The translations under genes and the position numbers were made by a program. From NCBI GenBank assembly GCA_902774365.1, contig CACYHX010000022.1, forward strand, positions 1 to 34,383: a stretch of DNA of 34,383 nt, written 5' to 3'. The DNA comes from an uncultured Bacteroidia bacterium (GTDB lineage: Bacteria; Bacteroidota; Bacteroidia; Bacteroidales; F082). Below the pieces are notes generated by a model. It made no database searches, was not told the DNA's origin, and saw only the letters and a program-made list of their open reading frames with translations. Shown here one piece after another: positions 8,785-18,541 of the stretch; positions within the stretch are counted from its first letter, which is position 1; each line of letters opens with the position of its first letter.

Positions 8785-11700
8785 TTATCTCACGACAACC
8801 TTTTCCATGTGTACTTGCGTGCCGTTGGTGAGGCGGATGAAGTAGACACCCTTGGTCAGGCTCTCCACGCTGATTTGCTCAGTGCCTTGGGCCTTACCAT
8901 TGGCCACCACTTGACCCAGGCCATTGTACATCACATAGGTGAATTCAGTGTCGCCGCCGTTGATGTAAAGGATGCTGTTAGCGGGGTTGGGATAGAGGGC
9001 GAACGTGCCATCGTTTTCGTCGAGGCTGGTGAGGTCGGCGGTGACGCACTCGGGCACCGACTGACCGCCTTCATACTCGGCGATGACGCAGTAGGTGTAG
9101 TTGATCAGCAGTGCGGTCTCATCGACATAGGTGGTGTCGGTGGTCTGGCCAATCTCGATGCCGTTGCGCATGACGATATAGTTGATGGCGCCTTCAGGGG
9201 CTTCCCAGGTCAGCGTGACGGTCGGGTCTTCGACGTTGGCTTCAAGGTTCTCAACAGGGGCGTAGTCCATGATGGGAGCCTGACCGCCAGTGCAGTTGCA
9301 GTCGAATTCGTTGATGACGCCCGAAGACGGGTTGCTGGCTTGACAAATGACCTCTCCTGATTCGTACTTGATGGAGAACGAACATTCGTAAGTGTAATTG
9401 CCTCTAATCCATGACACGGTGACGTGGACGCCATTGCCGATTTCGATGTTTTCCGTGGCCTCATTGCCATCGTCCAAGGTCAGTTCAATGGTGGGCGTGC
9501 CGTCGCTGAAAGCGAGACTCAGTTTGTTGCCGTTCCAGCCGTCGCCCCAGCTGTCGTTCATCTCAACGATGACGATGCAGGAGTTCTTCAAGACGAGAGA
9601 ACCTTCGGCAGTCAGTCCGCCGTCAGCTTGCAGCGTGAAGTTCAACGTGATTTGCTCGGTTTGCGGGCATGCCTCGTCGATGGCGATTTGGAAGGGGCAG
9701 TAAGCCAGACCTTCAGGGTCGATGGTGCCGATCAGGACGCTGTCGTTGAGGATGGTGACATACTCATTGTCGCAGGTGATGGTGGCGATGGCGTTGGTAG
9801 CCATGTAATGACCGATGTTTTGGAAGTTGGCGACGATGCTCTGCTCTTCGCCAGGAACGAAGTTGCCACTCCAGCTGGCGTCAACGTAATCAAGAATGGC
9901 TTGACCTGCGGTGACGTAGACCTTGCCTTCCCAAGTGTGCGAGTTGTCGGTCATGGTAACGTTGATTTGGAAACGCGTGCCGTCCATGGTGCCTTCGTTG
10001 ACGATAAAGCTGAAAGCGTCGGTCAGGGTTACGGTTTCGTTAGCGTTCAATACATCGAAGGTAGCCGTCTCGTTGAGGATCGTGATGCTGTGGCTCGGGC
10101 ACGACAGCGTCACCGTGGTGGTGCCATCGGTCGGGTCGACACCGACGTTCTTGAATCCGATGCTCAGGTTGGTTTCCACGTTGACGGGAGTGAAGGTAGG
10201 GGTGCTGTTGTCAACGGTAATGAAGGGTCCTTCAGCGGGAAGGATTTCGATGGACATGATTTCAGTCACCTTGTTGTAGCCCAACACGGTGAGGGTAGCG
10301 GTGCCCACTTCGTTCAGCGGGTTGAAATGCATTGTGCATTCGCCGTTGACGATGTTGCTGGAGCAAATCACTTCGCCATTCATCATCAGCGTGGCGATAC
10401 CGAAAGCAGTGTTCTGTGCGCTGATTTGCATCTCGCTCATGCCGAGCATTAAGGTGGAAGGCGAGCAGCTGACGTTCATGCTGACGGGGTTGTCGGTGCG
10501 TACCATCAAGCTCGGGTCGCCGAAGAGAATCCAGGTGTTATGGGTGTCGCCGTTGTCGGAAGGAGCGGCATCCAAAACGTACATGTTACCATTCAGGGAT
10601 GCACCACCGAAGGTGTGGCAGAACTTGTCGGTTGATCTCCATTCGGTGAGGATGTCAACCATCTCGTCTTGTCCGTACATAGGCGGTTGCCAAGGTTGTG
10701 AAATCCAGCTGAACATGCCTCCGATAGCACCGGTAGGAGTACCCGTGCTGTTGTTGGTGGCTCTCAGCCAAGCCTCGCCGAAGCAGGTGCCGTCGAATTG
10801 GCCGTTGTTGCAGGCCACCGACCAGATGTAAGGCCATTTGTCGTCGTTCACCAAGGTGTTGACGTGGCTGTTGCTGTAGTTGGCAACGGCCCAGCTCGTC
10901 TGTGATCCGTGGTTGCAGTAGTTGATGATGCTGGCACCAGCGTTGACGTCGTTGCTGATGGCAGCGGCACTTGTCCCACTACCCACGCCGCTATATTGCT
11001 GCGTCACGGCTTCGTAGGTGTAGTGCATCAGGGTGTCGCGGACAAAGTTAATGTGCACATAGTCGGCTTCGCCGAAGTGGCCGTTTCCGGCACCTTCGTT
11101 GGCGGAAACGCCAATACCCTTGTTGAGCCAGGTGAGGCCTTCGGGCATGTCACGCTCATAATACAGCACCTTGTTGACATGGGTGTTCACGTCGGTGACG
11201 TTCTGCACCGAGAAACGGCCAACAAGCACTTCGAGGTAGTAGTCGTTGCCTTCCAGCTGACCGAACCAGTTGTCGGAACGGCCACCATTCATTGAATGGG
11301 GGGTGATGTCGCTGTAGTCGCCGACGAAGAGGATGTAACCGAGGTTATGGTTGGCATCTTCGTAGTAGTTTTGGATGTACGACTTGAGGGCGTTGTTGTT
11401 ATTGCCTCCAGCTTCGCTAACGCTGACGATGGTGGTGGGACGTCCCGATTGGTTCTTCCATTCCACATAAGGCTGCATGGCATCCATATATTGGTCGGGG
11501 CAGATCACCAGTATCTCGCCATGGTCTTGAAGGAAGGTATACTTTGAAACACTCTCTTGATAGTTGATGAAGCGGTGGCTGTAGGCGGCATCCATCTCGG
11601 CCGACATCTTGACATTGGCTTTGCGGGCCACTTTTTGGTTTACGCCGTTGTCGCTCACCTTACGCATGGCGAGGGTTAGGCTATGGTAGACGCGAAGGGT

Positions 11701-12240
11701 CTTCGTCACGGGGTTGTAGGCGAAGGGACGTACCATAATGTTTTGTCCGCGGAAGTCACGGATGATGTAGGGCATTTCCAAATAGGCTTGCGTAGCAGGA
11801 TAGAAGGCATCCTTGCTGTACATGGCGCCATAGGTGTAGGCCACGGTCTCGGGGTCGATGGCGCGGCTGAAGTTACCTTTTGAAGGAGCGATTTCGACGT
11901 TTTGGTAGTCGGTGAATTCGCTCTTGAGAACACTCACTTCCATCTCAGCCCTGTCGCCAATGATGGCCGGGACAGGAAACTGGGGAAGGTCGGGGGCACC
12001 GGCTTCAAGCATCGAGGCCATCTTGGGGACGGAGACGATTTGCTGAGGGCCATTAGGGGTGCTCACTTCGGTCAGATTGAAGCCACCCAGCGAGAAGTCG
12101 ACAACGACTTGTTTCTCACTGCTCGAAATCAAAGTGACTTGTGGGGATGTCGGACTGCTCTTGCTGATGCCAGTCCACTGTTGGGCGAATGTCATTGCTG
12201 ATAAAGCCACAAACACGAGGGAAAACAGTACTTTTTTCAT
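8785..12240 (-). CDS. Arg-gingipain (RgpB)-like C25 cysteine protease secreted by T9SS
   Basis: A 1,151-residue secreted protease. Domains in order: signal peptide 1-20; C25 propeptide to about 230; catalytic domain about 240-580 with NHGSQTSW (His444) and SVACNNG (Cys477); an Ig-like domain to about 670; two CARDB-like beta-sandwiches; a SWGDGWNGNK domain from about 895; fibronectin-like domain about 993-1070; and a T9SS tail beginning LYPNP at 1082. The His-Cys spacing of 33 equals that recalled for RgpB (His211/Cys244). GEAD with Asp393 falls where RgpB has Asp163. Trp517, 40 residues after Cys477, matches Trp284. These residues form the Arg-binding S1 pocket, so cleavage after arginine is predicted. 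YGQDEM and TWILFGDPSLMVRT are further RgpB-like blocks. The protein should be exported, lose its propeptide and be anchored or released at the surface. Arg specificity is inference. Confidence 0.9.
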   Translation of the reverse strand: MKKVLFSLVFVALSAMTFAQQWTGISKSSPTSPQVTLISSSEKQVVVDFSLGGFNLTEVSTPNGPQQIVSVPKMASMLEAGAPDLPQFPVPAIIGDRAEMEVSVLKSEFTDYQNVEIAPSKGNFSRAIDPETVAYTYGAMYSKDAFYPATQAYLEMPYIIRDFRGQNIMVRPFAYNPVTKTLRVYHSLTLAMRKVSDNGVNQKVARKANVKMSAEMDAAYSHRFINYQESVSKYTFLQDHGEILVICPDQYMDAMQPYVEWKNQSGRPTTIVSVSEAGGNNNNALKSYIQNYYEDANHNLGYILFVGDYSDITPHSMNGGRSDNWFGQLEGNDYYLEVLVGRFSVQNVTDVNTHVNKVLYYERDMPEGLTWLNKGIGVSANEGAGNGHFGEADYVHINFVRDTLMHYTYEAVTQQYSGVGSGTSAAAISNDVNAGASIINYCNHGSQTSWAVANYSNSHVNTLVNDDKWPYIWSVACNNGQFDGTCFGEAWLRATNNSTGTPTGAIGGMFSWISQPWQPPMYGQDEMVDILTEWRSTDKFCHTFGGASLNGNMYVLDAAPSDNGDTHNTWILFGDPSLMVRTDNPVSMNVSCSPSTLMLGMSEMQISAQNTAFGIATLMMNGEVICSSNIVNGECTMHFNPLNEVGTATLTVLGYNKVTEIMSIEILPAEGPFITVDNSTPTFTPVNVETNLSIGFKNVGVDPTDGTTTVTLSCPSHSITILNETATFDVLNANETVTLTDAFSFIVNEGTMDGTRFQINVTMTDNSHTWEGKVYVTAGQAILDYVDASWSGNFVPGEEQSIVANFQNIGHYMATNAIATITCDNEYVTILNDSVLIGTIDPEGLAYCPFQIAIDEACPQTEQITLNFTLQADGGLTAEGSLVLKNSCIVIVEMNDSWGDGWNGNKLSLAFSDGTPTIELTLDDGNEATENIEIGNGVHVTVSWIRGNYTYECSFSIKYESGEVICQASNPSSGVINEFDCNCTGGQAPIMDYAPVENLEANVEDPTVTLTWEAPEGAINYIVMRNGIEIGQTTDTTYVDETALLINYTYCVIAEYEGGQSVPECVTADLTSLDENDGTFALYPNPANSILYINGGDTEFTYVMYNGLGQVVANGKAQGTEQISVESLTKGVYFIRLTNGTQVHMEKVVVR

Positions 12241-12281
12241 GTGTTATTAGATATAGATTAAAATAATACGCTTAAAAACTG

Positions 12282-12289
12282 CAAAAATA
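12282..12289 (-). promoter_or_regulatory. -7 promoter box for the RgpB-like gene
   Basis: Read on the minus strand this is TATTTTTG, 41 bases before the start codon at 12240. It is a plausible TAnnTTTG box with a short leader. Confidence 0.6.
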
Positions 12290-12357
12290 CGAATCTTTTT
12301 TCTAGTAGCGTGCCTTTCGTTTGAGTTTTATTTCAATTCAAAGTATTTATTTTTGTG

Positions 12358-12365
12358 TACCTTTG
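12358..12365 (+). promoter_or_regulatory. -7 promoter box (TACCTTTG) for the TerB-DnaJ gene
   Basis: TACCTTTG followed by CCGCC lies 25 bases before ATG 12391. The gene is divergent from the RgpB-like protease and has its own promoter in the shared 150-base gap. Confidence 0.7.
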
Positions 12366-12390
12366 CCGCCTGAATTAAAAATGAATTGTT

Positions 12391-13125
12391 ATGGGTTTTT
12401 TCTTGAAACTAATATTGACAGGCTTAGGCTGGGCTTTTGGAGGACCGTTGGGTGGCATCATCGGCTATGCCATCGGTTCGCTTTTTTCGGGTAACAGGCC
12501 GCGTGTGATCCGCTCCGAAGTGGAGGATACCTTTGGAAACACCGAGGAGAAACGTGATTTCAACGTGACGCTTTTGGTGCTCTCAGCCGCTGTGATGAAA
12601 GCCGACGGAAACGTGAAACGCTCCGAGTTGGATTACGTGAAACGCTTTTTCTTGCAGAATTTCGGTCAGCAGCGTGCCGAGAATTACATCAAGATGCTGC
12701 GCGAGATTCTGGATAAGGACTACAATCTTTATGAGGTCAGCCAGCAGGTGGGACGCTATATGGACTATTCCTCGCGTCTACAACTGCTTCATTACCTGTT
12801 TGGCATCGCCGATGCCGACGGCCGTATCTCGCAAGAGGAGTTGGGCGTCATCAACACCATTTCCGATTACATGGGCATCACCAACAGCGATTTTGCCTCG
12901 GTGAAGGCTATGTTTATCAAGGAAACCGACAGCGCTTACAAGATTCTCGGCATCGAGCCTTCCGCTACCGACGAGGAGGTGAAGAAAGCCTACCGCGAGA
13001 TGGCCAAGAAAAACCATCCCGACCTGGTCACCAACCTCGGAGAAGAGGTGCGGCAAGCCGCCGAAAAGAAGTTCCAGGAAATCAACGGAGCCTACGAATC
13101 CATCAAGAAACAACGAGGTATATAA
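12391..13125 (+). CDS. DjlA-like TerB and DnaJ domain co-chaperone
   Basis: A 244-residue protein. Residues 1-32 form a Gly-rich hydrophobic segment ([22 protein letters not shown]) that probably associates with the membrane. A TerB-like helical domain spans about 55-180, with two acidic loops, [11 protein letters not shown] and [12 protein letters not shown] DnaJ domain ends the protein: [20 protein letters not shown] and the HPD signature at 209-211, which activates an Hsp70 partner (DnaK). This order matches the DjlA class of membrane-linked J-proteins. It lies alone on the plus strand between two large secreted proteases, transcribed in the opposite direction. A link to their export is possible but unproven. 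Confidence 0.9.
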
Positions 13126-13161
13126 ATGAAAAAAGCCGCTCGAAAGCGGCTTTTTTCATTT
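13124..13161 (+). terminator. Bidirectional intrinsic terminator, perfect 17-bp arms
   Basis: AAATGAAAAAAGCCGCT (13124-13140), loop CGAA, and AGCGGCTTTTTTCATTT (13145-13161) are exact reverse complements. The A and T runs give U tracts in both directions, serving the converging genes that end at 13125 and 13176. It overlaps the TAA stop of the TerB-DnaJ gene. Confidence 0.92.
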
Positions 13162-13175
13162 GTGAAACTTAGTCT

Positions 13176-16100
13176 TTATTCCACGACGACCTTCTCCACG
13201 CGAATTTGCGTGCCAGAGGTGAGGCGGAGGAAGTAGACGCCCTTGGCCATGCCGTTGACATTGATCTGGGTGTTACCCGTGGCAGTGCCTTCAGCGACCT
13301 TCTGACCCATGCCGTTGAACATCATGTAGCTGTATTCGGCATCGCCTTCAACATACAAGGTGTTGTTGACGGGGTTGGGATAGATGGCAAATGCAACTTC
13401 GTTCTCGATGACGGCGTCGGTGAGTTCGACGACGACGCAAGCGGGAGAGGCAATACCATCGGCATATTCAGCAAACACGCAGTAGGTGTAGGAACCATCG
13501 TGGTCAATCGTGTTGTCGGTGTAGGTGGCTTGGGCCGTCTCGCCGATTTCGATACCGTTGCGCCAAATGATGAAGTTGGTTGCACCAGCGGGAGCCGTCC
13601 AGGTCAGCGTGACGTTAGCCACCGAAGGTTCGGCTTGGAGGTTCTCGACGGGAGCGAGGTCGTTACCACCGCCGCAATTAACGTCAAATTGGAAGGACCA
13701 TGATGAACTGGGGCTGCTGGCTTCGGTGATGACGGTGCCGTCATCATATTTTACGGTGAACGAGCACTCAGAGGCATAGTTGCCGTTGACCCAGCTGAGA
13801 GTCACATGGACGCCCATGCCGATTTCAAGGGTGTATTCAGCGGAGTTGCCGTTTTGAATGGTCAGTTCTTGAGTGGGCGTGCCGTCGTCGAAAGCCACGC
13901 GGAGCTTGTTGCCGTTCCAGCCGTCGCCCCATGAGTCGGCGAGCGAGAAGATGACGACACAAGCGTTCTTAAGGGTGGCGCTGCCTTCAGCGGTGAGGCC
14001 GCCGTCGGCAGTCAAGGTGAAGGTCAGAGGCAGTTGCTCCGTGCTGGGGCAGCTGGGGCTGACGATGACATTGAACACGCATGAAGCGGTGCCTTCAGGA
14101 TCGATGGTGCCCATCTGGATGGAGCTGCTCTCGAAACTGACATATTGGCTCGTCGAGACGATGGTGGCAACGGCGTTGGTAGCCATGTAGTGGCCCACGT
14201 TTTTGAAGTTAGCCACGACAGTGACGGTCTCGCCAGGAGTGAAGCCGCCAGCTTGTGCGTCGACAAATTCCAGAGTGGCTTCGCCAGCGGTGATGACGGC
14301 TCTGCCTTCCCAAGTGTCGCTACCGCAAACGGCGGTGATATTGATGGTGAAGCGCGTGCCATCGGCAACGCCAGAGGCGATATTATAGCTGAAACCATTC
14401 ACGGTGGTGGTGGCTTCGGGAGCGAGGCTGCCGAAGGAACCCGTGGGCTGGGTGAAGGTGAGAGCAGGATCGTCGCAGGTCAGCGTGACGTTGGTGGTGC
14501 CAGTGGTGGCAGCGGTACCGACGTTCTTGAAGGTGATGCCGAGTTGGGCTTCCTCGCCGACGTGAGCATAGGCGGGTGAGTAGCTGTCAATAGAGACAAA
14601 GGGACCTTCGAGGGCTGCGGCGGGAATGGTCTGGATGTAAGGAATACGCTGGGGAGCGGTCACGCAGATGGTGACGTCGCCGCCAGAGGTGATGGGATCG
14701 ACATTGACGTTGATGGTGCCTGTCTCGTCAACGAGACCCACGCCATAAAGCACGCCGTCCTTGCTGATGGCCACGTATGAGCCGGGATCGGCACTCACTT
14801 GGTATGTGCTGATGCCGATGGGGAAGATGGGCATGTGGCTCACAGTGTTAGCGATAGGCTGCACACGGAAAGGCATGATAGAGCCATCGCCCAAGGTGTG
14901 GTAGGCTTGCCAGTAGTAAAGGGTGGCGCTGTGCATTTGGTATCCAAGGGCTTGGGCAGCATTGCCAGCAAGGCATCCGATGAAAAGGTAAGAGTTGACG
15001 GTGTGATATGCATCGTCGCTCCAAATGGCGTCATACAGACCCATGGTGGTCTCTTCATAGGAAGGCATGGTGCCGTCGGCACGGTTGGTGGCACCAACAC
15101 CAAAGTAATAGTCGTTATACCAGGTGGTGTTCGGGCAAGAACCGATGTAGGCGTATGCGCCCTTGTTCTCGGCACGCACCATGGCTTCGCCGAAGCAGGT
15201 GCCATAACCCCAGTCGCCAGATTGGCAGCAGTTACCGATGGCGAGGAAATACTTGTGTTCGTTGGTCAGTTGGTTGACGTTGTTGACGTTGAATTCAGGG
15301 CCAGCCCAGCTGGTTTGGCTGCCGTGAGCCGTGTAGTTGGCAAAGCCGACGCCAGTGCTCAGATAGCTATAGCAATTGGTGTAAGTGCCATGGCTGAACT
15401 CATAGACGTTGTCGAAACCGTGTTCGGTGTTGTAGTAGTAGTTGGTGGCATACCAAATGGTAGGACGACCCACAGTGACTCCATAACCGCTGTCTTCACC
15501 AGCGATGAGGAGCACATTGTTCAGGTAGCTCGGGTCGGGCATGAGGTATTTCTCATATTCCAGGGCTTTGCTCAGCATGGCACTCATCTGTGCCTTGGTC
15601 GTGGCCGACAGACGGCTGTGGAACATATCGGGGAACTCGTCGCCGTCGGCACTCGAATAATAAAGGTCGGTCACACAAGAGGTCTGGCTGCCAGTGGCAG
15701 AGGCCGGCACTTGATCCTTGTCGCCCATGATGATGAGGAAGGTGGGGGCGTCTTGGGCATACTTGTTTTGGATGAAGGTCTTGATGGCGGCGGCAGTGCT
15801 GCCCACTTCATCGGTGAAGTTCAAGTCGATGTAGATACCTTTCATGGTCTTCCACTCCAGCCAATCTTGAATGACATCGTCAAACATACGGTTGGCGACG
15901 ATGAGCATCTTCACAGGAGCCTGCCACAGGTCTGGGTGCTGGTCGTACACGTCGTCACGCCAGTTGAACATCTGCTTGTAGACGCCAGCGAAGTAGGGGC
16001 TGAAGGTTCTTTCAAACTCGGAGTACGAAGCCGACTTGTCATATTGTCCGTAGCGGACTTCAACTTCGATGTCGTTGTATACGCGGATGCTGTTGGTGGC

Positions 16101-16649
16101 AGCGTCATATTGCACAGGGTTGATGGTCAGGGCACCGATTTGGATGCCACGCATCGTGCCTTGGATTTGCACGAGGGCGATAGGACGCTCGGCAAAGCCC
16201 TTGGCGGCATAAGCCTTGTCGCTGTAAGCAAACGGAACGTTTTCTTGATTCTTGTAAACCAGTTCCTGTTGGGGATAGATCGTCTTGATGCCATAGTCGG
16301 CAAGACGGTAGGTGCTGGTGCTGTAGTTCTTCACCTCGACGGTGATATCGTTGACACCGAAGGGGACGGCGATGAGCTGGTTGGCAGCGGGCAGCGAAGG
16401 CTCGCCGATATTACCGCTGGGGTAAGTCCCGTCCATGGTGATGTTGGAGAACACACCTTTTTCAGTGTTGACTTCAGTGGCGTTGATGCTGCTGAAGGAG
16501 AAGTTGGCGGTGAAACCGTCACTGGTCACATTGACACATTGTTGTGCCGAACTGGCTCTGCCTAAGTCGATGCGCTGTGCGCTGACGGTGGAGCCGATGA
16601 GCAATCCGATCAGAAGGAATGCTGCGGTTAAAATGTTGGCTTTTCTCAT
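13176..16649 (-). CDS. Lys-gingipain (Kgp)-like C25 cysteine protease secreted by T9SS
   Basis: A 1,157-residue secreted protease. Signal peptide 1-24; propeptide to about 225; catalytic domain about 245-600; then the same kinds of modules as the neighbour at 8785: two CARDB-like domains (about 680-890), SWGDGWNGNK domain from 905, fibronectin-like domain about 1000-1075 and a T9SS tail starting YPNP near 1090. The catalytic pair is His442 (NYTAHGSQTSW) and Cys475 (AIGNCC). The blocks KYFLAIGNCC, KGAYAYIGS, YYWQAYHTLGDGSIMPFR and GSYVAISKDGVLYG closely follow P. gingivalis Kgp as I recall it. Thr440 and Asp513 (YNDYY) correspond to Kgp Thr442 and Asp516, which bind the lysine side chain, so cleavage after lysine is predicted. 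Kgp's own catalytic residues are numbered 444 and 477, almost identical. Substrate preference is inferred, not shown. Confidence 0.92.
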   Translation of the reverse strand: MRKANILTAAFLLIGLLIGSTVSAQRIDLGRASSAQQCVNVTSDGFTANFSFSSINATEVNTEKGVFSNITMDGTYPSGNIGEPSLPAANQLIAVPFGVNDITVEVKNYSTSTYRLADYGIKTIYPQQELVYKNQENVPFAYSDKAYAAKGFAERPIALVQIQGTMRGIQIGALTINPVQYDAATNSIRVYNDIEVEVRYGQYDKSASYSEFERTFSPYFAGVYKQMFNWRDDVYDQHPDLWQAPVKMLIVANRMFDDVIQDWLEWKTMKGIYIDLNFTDEVGSTAAAIKTFIQNKYAQDAPTFLIIMGDKDQVPASATGSQTSCVTDLYYSSADGDEFPDMFHSRLSATTKAQMSAMLSKALEYEKYLMPDPSYLNNVLLIAGEDSGYGVTVGRPTIWYATNYYYNTEHGFDNVYEFSHGTYTNCYSYLSTGVGFANYTAHGSQTSWAGPEFNVNNVNQLTNEHKYFLAIGNCCQSGDWGYGTCFGEAMVRAENKGAYAYIGSCPNTTWYNDYYFGVGATNRADGTMPSYEETTMGLYDAIWSDDAYHTVNSYLFIGCLAGNAAQALGYQMHSATLYYWQAYHTLGDGSIMPFRVQPIANTVSHMPIFPIGISTYQVSADPGSYVAISKDGVLYGVGLVDETGTINVNVDPITSGGDVTICVTAPQRIPYIQTIPAAALEGPFVSIDSYSPAYAHVGEEAQLGITFKNVGTAATTGTTNVTLTCDDPALTFTQPTGSFGSLAPEATTTVNGFSYNIASGVADGTRFTINITAVCGSDTWEGRAVITAGEATLEFVDAQAGGFTPGETVTVVANFKNVGHYMATNAVATIVSTSQYVSFESSSIQMGTIDPEGTASCVFNVIVSPSCPSTEQLPLTFTLTADGGLTAEGSATLKNACVVIFSLADSWGDGWNGNKLRVAFDDGTPTQELTIQNGNSAEYTLEIGMGVHVTLSWVNGNYASECSFTVKYDDGTVITEASSPSSSWSFQFDVNCGGGNDLAPVENLQAEPSVANVTLTWTAPAGATNFIIWRNGIEIGETAQATYTDNTIDHDGSYTYCVFAEYADGIASPACVVVELTDAVIENEVAFAIYPNPVNNTLYVEGDAEYSYMMFNGMGQKVAEGTATGNTQINVNGMAKGVYFLRLTSGTQIRVEKVVVE

Positions 16650-16792: not shown

Positions 16793-18385
16793 TTATCTGC
16801 CTTTCAAAATGTTGTTGTATTCCTTGCTGTTGCCGAGCACCTCCAAGGCTTTCTGAATCCCAGGGTCAGTGGAGGCCATCACCTGATAGTATTGCTGCGT
16901 CTCCCATACGTTGCGGGCGATGAGGGCCTTCATCTGCAAGAGGATGAACTTCTCGGAGTGCCTAAACTGCTCGTCGTTCCATTCAACCTTGGCGTCTTCG
17001 GCGGCTTTCTTCAGCCCGTTGATGAGGTCTTGGTCGACAACGAAGTCTTTGTTATAGTTTTCAAAATCACCGTATTGCGCCTTGATGGCGTCGCGGTGCT
17101 TGAGGGCGTAGTCGGTGGTGAAACGGTTCAAGGCACCCTTACGGACGAGGTTGGTGTAGAGTTTGCTGTTGTAGGCCGTGTCGACAGGGATGAAGATGTC
17201 GGGCATGATGCCACCACCGCCGTAAACGGTGCGCCCGCCGTCGGTCTTGTATTTCAGCGAGTCGGGGAAGTGGATGCTGTCGGCATGGTAGTATTCGCCG
17301 TTTTTGAGGCGTTTCTCCATCTCCTTGGCATAGTCCTCAACGCCGTTTTCGTAGGGACGTTGGATGCAACGACCCGAAGGCGTGTGGTAACGCGAGGTGG
17401 TGAGGCGGATGACGGCGCCGTCGGGCAGGTTGAAAGGTCTTTGTACCAGACCTTTGCCGAAGGAACGACGGCCGATGACGACGCCACGGTCGTGGTCCTG
17501 GATGGCACCCGAGAGAATCTCGCTGGCCGAGGCCGAGCCTTCGTCGATGAGGACGACGAGTTTGCCGGCGGTGTATAGTCCGTTTTTCTTGCTCCTCCAT
17601 TCCTGACGAGGCGAGTGTATGCCTTCGGTGAAGACGATGAGTTTGTTTTCGGTGAGGAACTGGTCGACGAGCTCAATGGCGGTGTTGAGGTAACCGCCCG
17701 TGTTGCCGCGCAGGTCGAAGATGAGCGACTCCATGCCTTGTGCCTGCAGCTTGTTGAAAGCCTCCATGAACTCTTGGTTAGACTCTTGTGCGAAGCGGTC
17801 AAGCTTGATGTAGCCGACATGGTTGTCAAGCATATAGGCTGCGTTGATGCTGTTCAACGGAATCTTGTCGCGGGTGATTTCAAAATCAATGAGTTCGGGG
17901 TCGCTACCGCGCTTCACGCTGACGGTGACCTTGGTGCCTTTCTTGCCGCGCAGGCGTTTCTGCACATAGTCGTTGTCGATCTTCTTGCCAAAGGCATCCT
18001 CGCCGTCGATTTTGATAATCTGGTCACCGGTCATGATGCCGACTTTCTCGGAGGGACCTCCTGCCGTGGGGCTGATGACGGTGATAGTGTCGCGGATGAG
18101 CTGGTAGGTCACGCCGATGCCCTCGAAGCTACCCACGAGGGGTTCGTTGGTCTTCTCCACATCTTTCTTCGAGATGTAGGCCGAGTGCGGGTCGAGTTCC
18201 TTCAGCGCGGCGATGATGGCGTCTTCCGTCACCTTGTCGAGGTTGGCGGTGTCAACGTAGAAGTTCTCTATCAGATAAAGCGTGGTGCCCAGTTTTTGGG
18301 CGTTCATCTGGGCTTTGGATTGGGCTGTGGCTGCCATGGCAAAGAGGCAAGCAATAGCCAAAAAAAACAATTTCAGTGATTTCAT
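16793..18385 (-). CDS. S41 carboxy-terminal processing protease (CtpA/Prc type)
   Basis: A 530-residue periplasmic serine protease. ATG 18385 is chosen: it gives the signal peptide MKSLKLFFLAIACLFAMAATAQ. The longer frame to 18469 would run through the -7 promoter box. A helical N-terminal part (about 25-80) precedes a PDZ domain (about 85-160, FEGIGVTYQL and GIMTGDQIIKIDG). The peptidase core has the catalytic Ser286 (DEGSASASEI), Lys311 (FGKGLVQ) and Gln315, with the 25-residue Ser-Lys spacing of Prc and CtpB. The C-terminal extension after about 400 is helical. Such enzymes trim or degrade envelope proteins from the C-terminal side. It lies directly downstream in position from the gingipain genes, on the same strand, but has its own promoter. 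Confidence 0.92.
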   Translation of the reverse strand: MKSLKLFFLAIACLFAMAATAQSKAQMNAQKLGTTLYLIENFYVDTANLDKVTEDAIIAALKELDPHSAYISKKDVEKTNEPLVGSFEGIGVTYQLIRDTITVISPTAGGPSEKVGIMTGDQIIKIDGEDAFGKKIDNDYVQKRLRGKKGTKVTVSVKRGSDPELIDFEITRDKIPLNSINAAYMLDNHVGYIKLDRFAQESNQEFMEAFNKLQAQGMESLIFDLRGNTGGYLNTAIELVDQFLTENKLIVFTEGIHSPRQEWRSKKNGLYTAGKLVVLIDEGSASASEILSGAIQDHDRGVVIGRRSFGKGLVQRPFNLPDGAVIRLTTSRYHTPSGRCIQRPYENGVEDYAKEMEKRLKNGEYYHADSIHFPDSLKYKTDGGRTVYGGGGIMPDIFIPVDTAYNSKLYTNLVRKGALNRFTTDYALKHRDAIKAQYGDFENYNKDFVVDQDLINGLKKAAEDAKVEWNDEQFRHSEKFILLQMKALIARNVWETQQYYQVMASTDPGIQKALEVLGNSKEYNNILKGR

Positions 18386-18411
18386 TGGGATAGAATAAGA
18401 TTTTAGGGGCG

Positions 18412-18419
18412 CAAAGATA
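18412..18419 (-). promoter_or_regulatory. -7 promoter box (TATCTTTG) for the S41 protease
   Basis: The plus strand reads CAAAGATA, which is TATCTTTG on the minus strand, 26 bases before the start codon at 18385. It supports the shorter gene start. Confidence 0.75.
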
Positions 18420-18541
18420 ATGCATTTTTCGGAAAAGAGGTGCTTTAGTACGCAAATCTGCATGTTCATTTCGTTCGAAATTCCGAAACGTTTGAGTATA
18501 CAAATGAAAGTGGTAGTAAATCAGTCTAAGTTCTCTTTTTT

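What the first reader, a model, noticed from the sequence alone, without database searches (positions are those of the whole stretch)
8785..16649. Side-by-side Arg- and Lys-gingipain-like proteases
Two T9SS-secreted C25 proteases lie within 8 kb. The first has His444, Cys477, Asp393 and Trp517 at the places of RgpB His211, Cys244, Asp163 and Trp284. The second has His442, Cys475, Thr440 and Asp513 at the places of Kgp His444, Cys477, Thr442 and Asp516. Together they would cleave after both basic residues, as the P. gingivalis gingipains do from separate loci. The rest of the window (queuosine genes, POT transporters, stand-alone DnaE) does not look like P. gingivalis, so this may be an uncharacterised commensal or rumen gingipain pair. 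Co-occurrence with two peptide transporters suggests a proteolytic lifestyle.
Basis: partly seen in the sequence, partly recalled or inferred. Interest (0 to 1): 0.78.

Follow-up and report, generated by a model that had tools for sequence, protein, structure and literature searches.

The report
Tandem Arg- and Lys-gingipain-like protease genes
Two neighbouring genes of an uncultured bacterium with ruminant-gut relatives encode enzymes that look built to be secreted and to cut proteins after arginine and after lysine, like the gum-disease gingipains, and the same pair recurs side by side in many distant relatives.

Summary
Both ORFs (8785-12240, 13176-16649, minus strand) are full-length C25 proteases with T9SS sorting domains. 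Best solved relatives: RgpB for the first (281 bits v 63 for Kgp), Kgp for the second (453 v 115). A second sign agrees: the propeptide inhibitory loop has Arg in the Rgp-like and Lys in the Kgp-like protein, where PorU and four other C25 paralogues have neither. Named relatives are Bacteroidales MAGs, several from ruminants. Of 393 genomes of the order 153 hold both types (135 at a stricter cut-off); of 65 loci outside the genus with enough flank, 40 have the two side by side, 37 with the Kgp-like gene upstream. New hypothesis: in this genus the Rgp-like propeptide ends in Lys and the Kgp-like in Arg, so each zymogen may need the other. That pattern holds in the genus; order-wide the Rgp-like junction is mixed. 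No activity is known, and predicted structures were too weak to test S1 geometry.

The parts
8785..12240 (-). Rgp-like C25 protease precursor (P0001, 1151 aa): signal peptide (inferred), propeptide, catalytic domain, Ig-like domain, ~415 aa tail, T9SS type A sorting domain
   Evidence: Pfam/NCBIfam; best PDB match RgpB 281 bits; Foldseek top matches 4ief and 1cvr even with a weak model
13176..16649 (-). Kgp-like C25 protease precursor (P0002, 1157 aa), same domain order
   Evidence: Pfam/NCBIfam; best PDB match Kgp 453 bits
11542..12183 (-). Propeptide of the Rgp-like protein, residues 20-233 (start inferred from the Gln that follows the hydrophobic N-terminus; end inferred from the RgpB junction)
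   Evidence: PF08126; match to the RgpB pro-domain 4ief_A, E 1.2e-32
11863..11865 (-). Arg126, inhibitory-loop residue of the Rgp-like propeptide
   Evidence: R in 64 of 65 genus rows (window protein counted twice; the exception, L035, has also lost the catalytic His and Cys) and in 124 of 124 order-wide rows; lies in the RgpB inhibitory loop Lys113-Glu128 (PMC3677877)
11542..11544 (-). Lys233, inferred last propeptide residue of the Rgp-like protein (RgpB has Arg here)
   Evidence: K 53, R 5, K one residue earlier 7, of 65 genus rows
10489..11541 (-). Catalytic domain of the Rgp-like protein, residues 234-584; Asp393 at 11062-11064, His444 at 10909-10911, Cys477 at 10810-10812, Trp517 at 10690-10692
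   Evidence: Residue map to RgpB; D393, H444, C477 and W517 each in 123 of 124 order-wide rows, the other row a fragment
15957..16577 (-). Propeptide of the Kgp-like protein, residues 25-231 (ends inferred); loop residue Lys133 at 16251-16253; junction Arg231 at 15957-15959
   Evidence: Match to Kgp pro-domain 5mun, E 3.3e-48; K133 in 51 of 51 and R231 in 50 of 51 genus rows after dropping paralogue L003 (window counted twice)
14859..15956 (-). Catalytic domain of the Kgp-like protein, residues 232-597; Thr440 at 15330-15332, His442 at 15324-15326, Cys475 at 15225-15227, Asp513 at 15111-15113
   Evidence: Residue map to Kgp; H442, N473, C475, W510, D513 in 85 of 85 order-wide rows, T440 as T 78 / S 7
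8998..10239 (-). C-terminal tail of the Rgp-like protein before the sorting domain
   Evidence: Tail including sorting domain 54.7% identical to that of the Kgp-like protein, against 28.3% in the catalytic domains
13386..14618 (-). C-terminal tail of the Kgp-like protein before the sorting domain
   Evidence: As above; weak CARDB match below cut-off
12391..13125 (+). DjlA-like (TerB-DnaJ) gene on the opposite strand between the two proteases
   Evidence: NCBIfam DjlA match below its cut-off, 106.8 v 162 bits; homologue between the pair in 23 of 24 named-locus pairs

Best explanation
The window holds a gingipain-type protease pair. One enzyme (8785-12240) should cut after Arg, the other (13176-16649) after Lys. 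Both are made as zymogens, go through Sec and then the type IX system, and act outside the cell or on its surface, where together they would break proteins at basic residues. In each zymogen a propeptide loop places the enzyme's own preferred residue (Arg or Lys) in the S1 pocket. The Kgp-like/Rgp-like pair is an order-wide arrangement, most often with the Kgp-like gene upstream; the window has one of its versions, with a DjlA-like gene on the other strand between them. Shown here: sequence family, residue maps, conservation, gene order, co-occurrence. Inferred from the RgpB and Kgp literature: substrate specificity, latency mechanism and secretion. Speculative: that each enzyme removes the other's propeptide, and that the purpose is nutrition in the gut.
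For: PDB sequence matches split cleanly by type, also for the pro-domains. The catalytic residues and the charged S1 anchors map. Loop residue and S1 Asp agree order-wide: R126 124/124 with D393 123/124 in Rgp-like, K133 83/83 (2 gaps) with D513 85/85 in Kgp-like. The genome's two PorU and four other C25 paralogues have W, Y, D or N at the loop column and no Asp at the D513 column; five of the six have none at the D393 column either. A tree of 235 catalytic domains separates all 138 Rgp-like from all 97 Kgp-like, with RgpB and Kgp on the expected sides. Both sorting domains are above cut-off, and the genome holds two PorU sortases far above cut-off. Both types in 153 of 393 genomes, Rgp-like only 15, Kgp-like only 38, neither 187; at E 1e-80: 135, 10, 48, 200. 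Side by side in 40 of 65 loci with at least 3 kb on both sides. R and K distances of 54 adjacent pairs correlate, r 0.635, 0 of 5000 permutations as high.
Against: No activity data. The S1 pocket is not identical to the references (T209->C442, G210->N443; Y512->T509), although C442 is common in the family (32 of 124). One control paralogue (L008) also has an Asp in the D393 column although its loop residue is Tyr, so that Asp alone does not mark the type. One genus orthologue (L035) has lost loop Arg, His and Cys. Predicted structures were weak (mean pLDDT 62.8 and 50.1; active-site region mostly under 50), so pocket geometry was not tested. T9SS components other than PorU and the sorting domain were not searched. 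Twenty-five of the 65 loci have no adjacent partner. Counts are not corrected for phylogeny.
Confidence: 0.85

Rival explanations
1. Cross-unlocking: in this genus each zymogen cuts its own inhibitory loop but needs its partner to cut the pro/mature junction, so activation is mutual; in P. gingivalis both RgpB and Kgp propeptides end in Arg, so an Arg-cutter suffices for both.
For: Within the genus the Rgp-like junction is Lys in 53 of 65 rows, Lys one residue earlier in 7, Arg in 5, in a variable linker; the Kgp-like junction is Arg in 50 of 51 rows. RgpB and Kgp propeptides end in FMNYEATR and AYKQLFNR, read from primers in PMC3677877.
Against: Order-wide the Rgp-like junction is K 57, R 51, other 16 of 124 and does not track adjacency as labelled (K v R: 26 v 19 adjacent, 9 v 14 not adjacent, Fisher p 0.20). 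Among 8 genomes with a propeptide-bearing Rgp-like but no detected Kgp-like gene the junction is K in 3 and R in 5. PorU is reported to take part in prodomain removal in P. gingivalis (PMC10202324 passage).
Confidence: 0.3
2. Functional divergence: the fold is gingipain-like but the S1 changes broaden or shift specificity, so the pair is not strictly Arg/Lys.
For: C442/N443 in the Rgp-like and T509/Y389/Q476 in the Kgp-like active site differ from RgpB and Kgp.
Against: The charged anchor Asp, Trp lid, Met521, Asn473 and the specificity-matched loop residue are retained with few exceptions.
Confidence: 0.1
3. The two proteases act mainly on the cell's own surface proteins (maturing T9SS cargo, fimbriae) and not on food protein.
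For: P. gingivalis gingipains process fimbrial subunits (PMC10202324 passages); the genome has 12 C25 matches.
Against: No specific surface substrate was found or sought; nearby POT genes fit a nutritive role but are not linked to the pair.
Confidence: 0.25
4. The adjacency is an accident of recent tandem duplication in this lineage.
For: Both share a homologous tail (54.7% identical).
Against: Catalytic domains are only 28% identical and belong to two clades that both run across the order; the same arrangement is seen in many other families.
Confidence: 0.02

Closest known systems
RgpB / RgpA (Arg-gingipains, MEROPS C25), P. gingivalis
   Same: Propeptide, catalytic and Ig-like domains, S1 Asp163/Trp284/Met288, catalytic His/Cys, inhibitory-loop Arg126, T9SS sorting domain
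   Different: 36.8% identity in the catalytic domain; Lys instead of Arg at the pro/mature junction; long tail without HA domains; gene beside a Kgp-like gene, whereas RgpA, RgpB and Kgp have far-apart locus tags PG2024, PG0506, PG1844 (PMC5445135 passage)
Kgp (Lys-gingipain), P. gingivalis
   Same: 52.2% identity in the catalytic domain; T442, N475, W513, D516 kept; inhibitory-loop Lys110 (propeptide numbering) matches Lys133; junction Arg
   Different: Y512->T509, W391->Y389; no haemagglutinin-adhesin domain match in Pfam; near an Rgp-like gene
PorU, T9SS sortase (also C25)
   Same: C25 core
   Different: No Asp at either S1 column; Trp at the aligned loop column; the genome's own PorU genes are separate
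Gingipain-like C25 peptidases of sediments
   Same: Exported C25 peptidases reported as over 40% of exported-peptidase genes at each depth in an estuary (PMC6752024, passages)
   Different: That work counts the family as a whole; the passages seen do not describe an Arg/Lys gene pair

Membership tests
Arg-gingipain (RgpB type) | C25 catalytic, Ig-like and propeptide domains in order | tested here: met
   PF01364, PF03785, PF08126 above cut-off
Arg-gingipain (RgpB type) | His/Cys dyad and S1 Asp163, Trp284, Met288 | tested here: met
   H444, C477, D393, W517, M521; T209 and G210 are not kept
Arg-gingipain (RgpB type) | Arg in the propeptide inhibitory loop | tested here: met
   R126; 124 of 124 order-wide rows
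Arg-gingipain (RgpB type) | Propeptide ends in Arg (self-cleavable junction) | tested here: not met
   Lys233 in the window; Arg in 5 of 65 genus rows and 51 of 124 order-wide rows. Variable within the type, so not treated as defining
Arg-gingipain (RgpB type) | Groups with RgpB, apart from Kgp, in a tree | tested here: met
   All 138 Rgp-like leaves, RgpB and window included, on one side
Arg-gingipain (RgpB type) | Cleaves after Arg | not testable with these tools
   Needs enzyme assay
Lys-gingipain (Kgp type) | S1 Thr442, Asn475, Trp513, Asp516 and His/Cys dyad | tested here: met
   T440, N473, W510, D513, H442, C475; pocket roles from PMC6426963
Lys-gingipain (Kgp type) | Lys in the propeptide inhibitory loop; Arg at the junction | tested here: met
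   K133 51 of 51 and R231 50 of 51 genus rows
Lys-gingipain (Kgp type) | Groups with Kgp, apart from Rgp, in a tree | tested here: met
   Window Kgp-like and Kgp in one clade of 41 leaves, support 0.996
Lys-gingipain (Kgp type) | Haemagglutinin-adhesin domains (PMC3677877, gives them for RgpA and Kgp) | tested here: not met
   No such Pfam match; RgpB lacks them too, so not treated as defining for the enzyme type
Lys-gingipain (Kgp type) | Cleaves after Lys | not testable with these tools
   Needs enzyme assay
T9SS cargo | C-terminal type A sorting domain in a genome with PorU | tested here: met
   TIGR04183 51.9 and 47.1 bits, cut-off 23; two PorU, 1187.8 and 992.2 bits, cut-off 420. Other T9SS parts not searched

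The most novel reading that the evidence does not exclude
The gingipain pair is an old Bacteroidales two-enzyme unit, of which the P. gingivalis gingipains are scattered members, and in this genus the unit works as a mutual lock: each zymogen opens its own inhibitory loop, but its propeptide can only be removed by the partner, so neither protease is fully active until both are outside the cell.
Probability: 0.28. Interest if true: 0.75.

Novelty: new member of a known kind. Interest (0 to 1): 0.55.

Why it matters
Gingipains are usually discussed as weapons of P. gingivalis; one comparative study finds gingipain genes within Porphyromonas only in P. gingivalis and P. gulae, and Kgp only in P. 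gingivalis (PMC4700951 passages). Here both types appear in 34-39% of the sampled genomes of the order (135 or 153 of 393, by cut-off) and often as adjacent genes. That suggests a widespread protein-digesting unit, offers homologues outside P. gingivalis for studying gingipain latency and inhibitor selectivity, and makes 'who activates whom' testable by comparing Lys- and Arg-junction zymogens that already exist in nature.

Tried and rejected
Junction Lys as an order-wide mark of dependence on a Kgp-like partner: rejected as a general rule. Junction K/R does not track adjacency (p 0.20), and Lys junctions also occur in 3 of 8 genomes with no Kgp-like gene found at E 1e-60. One search covered 15 such genomes; the other 7 gave six C25 proteins of 524-530 aa with no propeptide match and one without the catalytic residues.

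First adjacency count: one search gave 56 adjacent of 80 judged (53 Kgp-like upstream, 3 downstream, 24 none; 35 undetermined). It was biased upward: loci with short flanks counted if adjacent but not if alone, for G120 and G214 I had taken a locus already seen beside a Kgp-like match instead of the top-scoring one, and G138 was in twice. One search mends this (top-scoring locus of each of 114 genomes, G120 and G214 refetched, at least 3 kb on both sides): 65 judged, 37 upstream, 3 downstream, 25 none. With upstream flank alone required: 49 of 95.

Strong gene conversion between the two tails: not supported. In 25 genus pairs the Rgp-like tail is as close or closer to another species' Rgp-like tail than to its own Kgp-like tail (one tie at 67%, L082; one tail, L096, was only 60 aa), own-pair identity 29 to 67%.

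Structure-based test of S1: two AlphaFold2 jobs with 16-row alignments gave pLDDT 62.8 and 50.1 and are unusable at the active site. A Foldseek search of the first ranked RgpB first; the second was not searched.

Recent tandem duplication: rejected for the catalytic parts (28% identity, two separate clades).

Phylum-wide spread: at E 1e-80 only 2 of 246 genomes other than G000 had each type, against 145 (Rgp-like) and 183 (Kgp-like) of 393 in the order at that cut-off, so in these samples it is mainly a trait of the order.

Literature: searches were searched. No listing or passage I saw describes a tandem Arg/Lys gingipain pair outside P. gingivalis or swapped junction residues, but the subscription papers on gingipain zymogens that I asked for are not held, so 'not in print' is not established.
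Full report
What is there. The window is contig C22 of a 2.82 Mb, 79-contig, 82.6% complete genome. On its minus strand lie two C25 protease precursors, 13176-16649 (1157 aa) and 8785-12240 (1151 aa), in that order of transcription. Both have Propeptide_C25, Peptidase_C25, the C25 Ig-like domain and a T9SS type A sorting domain, all above curated cut-offs. Between them, on the other strand, is a DjlA-like gene (12391-13125). Beside the Kgp-like gene lies a C-terminal processing peptidase (16793-18469). The 31 named loci related to P0001 come from MAGs titled (uncultured) Bacteroidales or Bacteroidia bacterium; 6 titles name red deer, goat or water buffalo, 14 bear RUG labels (recalled as rumen uncultured genomes), 11 only SRR numbers. 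The genus is unnamed in the tools and I do not name it; that the order is Bacteroidales rests on these titles.

Type of each enzyme. Against all PDB sequences P0001 scores 281 bits with RgpB and 63 with Kgp; P0002 scores 453 with Kgp and 115 with RgpB. The pro-domains match in the same way (115.7 v 39.7 bits for P0001; 167.7 v 21.9 for P0002). Pairwise alignment maps D163, H211, C244, W284 and M288 of RgpB to D393, H444, C477, W517 and M521, and T442, H444, N475, C477, W513 and D516 of Kgp to T440, H442, N473, C475, W510 and D513. The pocket roles come from PMC9559808 and PMC6426963. Not kept: RgpB T209 and G210 (C442, N443) and Kgp W391, I478 and Y512 (Y389, Q476, T509).

Independent sign of specificity. 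In RgpB the propeptide loop Lys113-Glu128 approaches the active site in a substrate-like manner (PMC3677877); in Kgp the propeptide Lys most susceptible to cleavage is Lys110. Both fall in one alignment column here: Arg126 in P0001 and Lys133 in P0002. Order-wide the column is R in 124 of 124 Rgp-like and K in 83 of 83 Kgp-like rows (2 gaps; 2 of the 85 Kgp-like rows, L138 and L139, belong to the window's genus), in step with the S1 Asp at two different places (D393 in 123 of 124; D513 in 85 of 85). As a control, the genome's two PorU proteins and four other C25 paralogues (L008-L011) have W, Y, D or N in that column and no Asp at the D513 column. Five of these six also lack Asp at the D393 column; L008 has one there with Tyr at the loop, so that Asp by itself is not decisive. 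The genome's Rgp-like paralogue (L004) and Kgp-like paralogues (L003, L007) follow the rule. One further C25 match of the genome (L012, a fragment) was not aligned, and the propeptide alignment of the distant paralogues is uncertain. One genus orthologue, L035 (1161 aa), has Gly for the loop Arg together with Lys for His444 and Asn for Cys477: a likely inactive copy in which loop and active site were lost together.

The genus. In some searches, 36 genomes of the genus were searched (own included). Reading the two tables by hand, a Kgp-like gene lies beside the best Rgp-like gene on the same contig and strand, upstream, in 31 of 36. In four (G014, G024, G028, G032) both genes sit at ends of different contigs; in G003 no partner was listed beside the Rgp-like gene. 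In 23 of 24 named-locus pairs a DjlA-like gene lies between them on the opposite strand; in L090 there is none and the gap is 45 bases.

Junction residues. Alignment of 65 Rgp-like rows (window twice; paralogues and some fragments included) shows the inferred last propeptide residue as Lys in 53, Arg in 5, and in the other 7 Lys one residue earlier, in a linker that is otherwise variable. In 51 Kgp-like rows (window twice, L003 dropped) the junction is Arg in 50. Primers in PMC3677877 show that RgpB and Kgp propeptides both end in Arg. So in P. gingivalis an Arg-cutter suffices for both junctions, while in this genus the Rgp-like junction asks for a Lys-cutter and the Kgp-like junction for an Arg-cutter. 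That is the basis of the mutual-unlocking hypothesis. Against it, order-wide the Rgp-like junction is K 57, R 51, other 16 of 124, unrelated to adjacency (p 0.20), and Lys also occurs where no Kgp-like gene was found (3 of 8 genomes). The order-wide Kgp-like junction could not be aligned well enough to count. I keep it as a hypothesis for this genus only.

The order. An even sample of 393 genomes of the order (5 of the genus among those with matches) gave Rgp-like matches (E 1e-40) in 168 genomes and 100 of 206 genera, Kgp-like (E 1e-60) in 191 genomes and 110 genera; both 153, Rgp only 15, Kgp only 38, neither 187, odds ratio 50. Weak Rgp-like hits may be other C25 types, so I repeated the count at E 1e-80, dropping by hand 23 Rgp-like and 8 Kgp-like genomes: both 135, Rgp only 10, Kgp only 48, neither 200, odds ratio 56. 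Neither count is corrected for phylogeny. For gene order I took the top-scoring Rgp-like locus of 114 of the 163 genomes outside the genus, those printed in the truncated list, hence the closer homologues. Sixty-five have at least 3 kb on both sides: 37 have a Kgp-like gene upstream within 2 kb on the same strand, 3 downstream only, 25 neither. An earlier, biased count (56 of 80) is explained under Tried and rejected. In 53 upstream cases the distance from the end of the Kgp-like frame to the opening of the Rgp-like frame runs from -109 to 410 bases, 44 of them at most 56, so many are probably operons (inference).

History. A FastTree of 235 catalytic domains (RgpB, Kgp and window included) puts all 138 Rgp-like and all 97 Kgp-like in separate groups with no mixing (support 1.0 for the Kgp group, 0.69 for the Rgp group under midpoint rooting); RgpB and Kgp fall inside the expected groups. 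The Kgp group has two parts: one with Kgp and the window's genus (41 leaves, 0.996), and one (56 leaves) that supplies 52 of the 54 adjacent partners usable. So most order-wide tandem partners are a sister group of Kgp, not Kgp in the strict sense, although their anchor and loop residues are the same. Distances between R and K members of the 54 pairs correlate (r 0.635; 0.487 for the 52), with 0 of 5000 permutations as high, as expected if pairs were inherited together. In 247 genomes sampled over the phylum only 2 besides the window's genome had each type at E 1e-80.

Tail. The two window tails (with sorting domain) are 54.7% identical, the catalytic domains 28.3%. In 25 genus pairs Kgp-like tails come in two lengths (480 in the window and 482-486 aa in 16 others; 521-523 aa in 8); the longer ones are 29-38% identical to their Rgp-like partner's tail. 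This looks like modular exchange of tails. P. gingivalis RgpA and Kgp carry haemagglutinin-adhesin domains (PMC3677877), a parallel in design, but no HA domain is found here.

Structure. Foldseek ranked RgpB first for the P0001 model (E 2.4e-29) with Kgp behind (2.8e-19).

Papers. Seen as passages: PMC3677877 (also two stretches of full text), PMC13366090, PMC9559808, PMC6426963, PMC10202324, PMC8861167, PMC6752024, PMC5445135, PMC4700951. PMC5837995, on Gln after signal peptides in Bacteroidetes, was seen only in a search listing; Gln20 and Gln25 of the two precursors fit it and are invariant in the 16-row alignments A1 and A2.

Verdict. A correct and well-read observation of two gingipain-type enzymes. 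The enzymes are new members of a known family; the order-wide tandem and the genus-wide swapped junctions were not met in my literature searches, which do not cover most subscription journals.

Noticed in passing
L001 and L002 (G000 contig C8, 45043-52594): Two full-length PorU-type T9SS sortases (1240 and 1134 aa; 1187.8 and 992.2 bits against NF033707) lie side by side in the window's genome.
   Followed up: partly
L035 294-3776 (G014): Full-length Rgp-like orthologue with Gly at the loop Arg, Lys at His444 and Asn at Cys477: probably an inactive protease.
   Followed up: no
L291-L296: C25 proteins of 524-530 aa in two other families keep Rgp-like Asp, His, Cys, Trp and Met but show no propeptide match.
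   Followed up: no
12391-13125: DjlA-like (TerB-DnaJ) gene on the opposite strand between the protease genes in 23 of 24 named-locus pairs of the genus, where many other loci have a tight tandem.
   Followed up: partly
L008-L011 (G000 contigs C2 and C54): Further C25 paralogues with Tyr, Asp or Asn at the propeptide loop column; if the loop mirrors S1 specificity these may have other P1 preferences. Alignment there is uncertain.
   Followed up: no
L238 and L218: In the C25 tree these order-wide Rgp-like proteins are the nearest neighbours of P. gingivalis RgpB (support 0.915 for the three).
   Followed up: no
1-2000: G+C is 0.398 at the left end of the window against 0.44-0.56 in the other 2 kb steps.
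   Followed up: no
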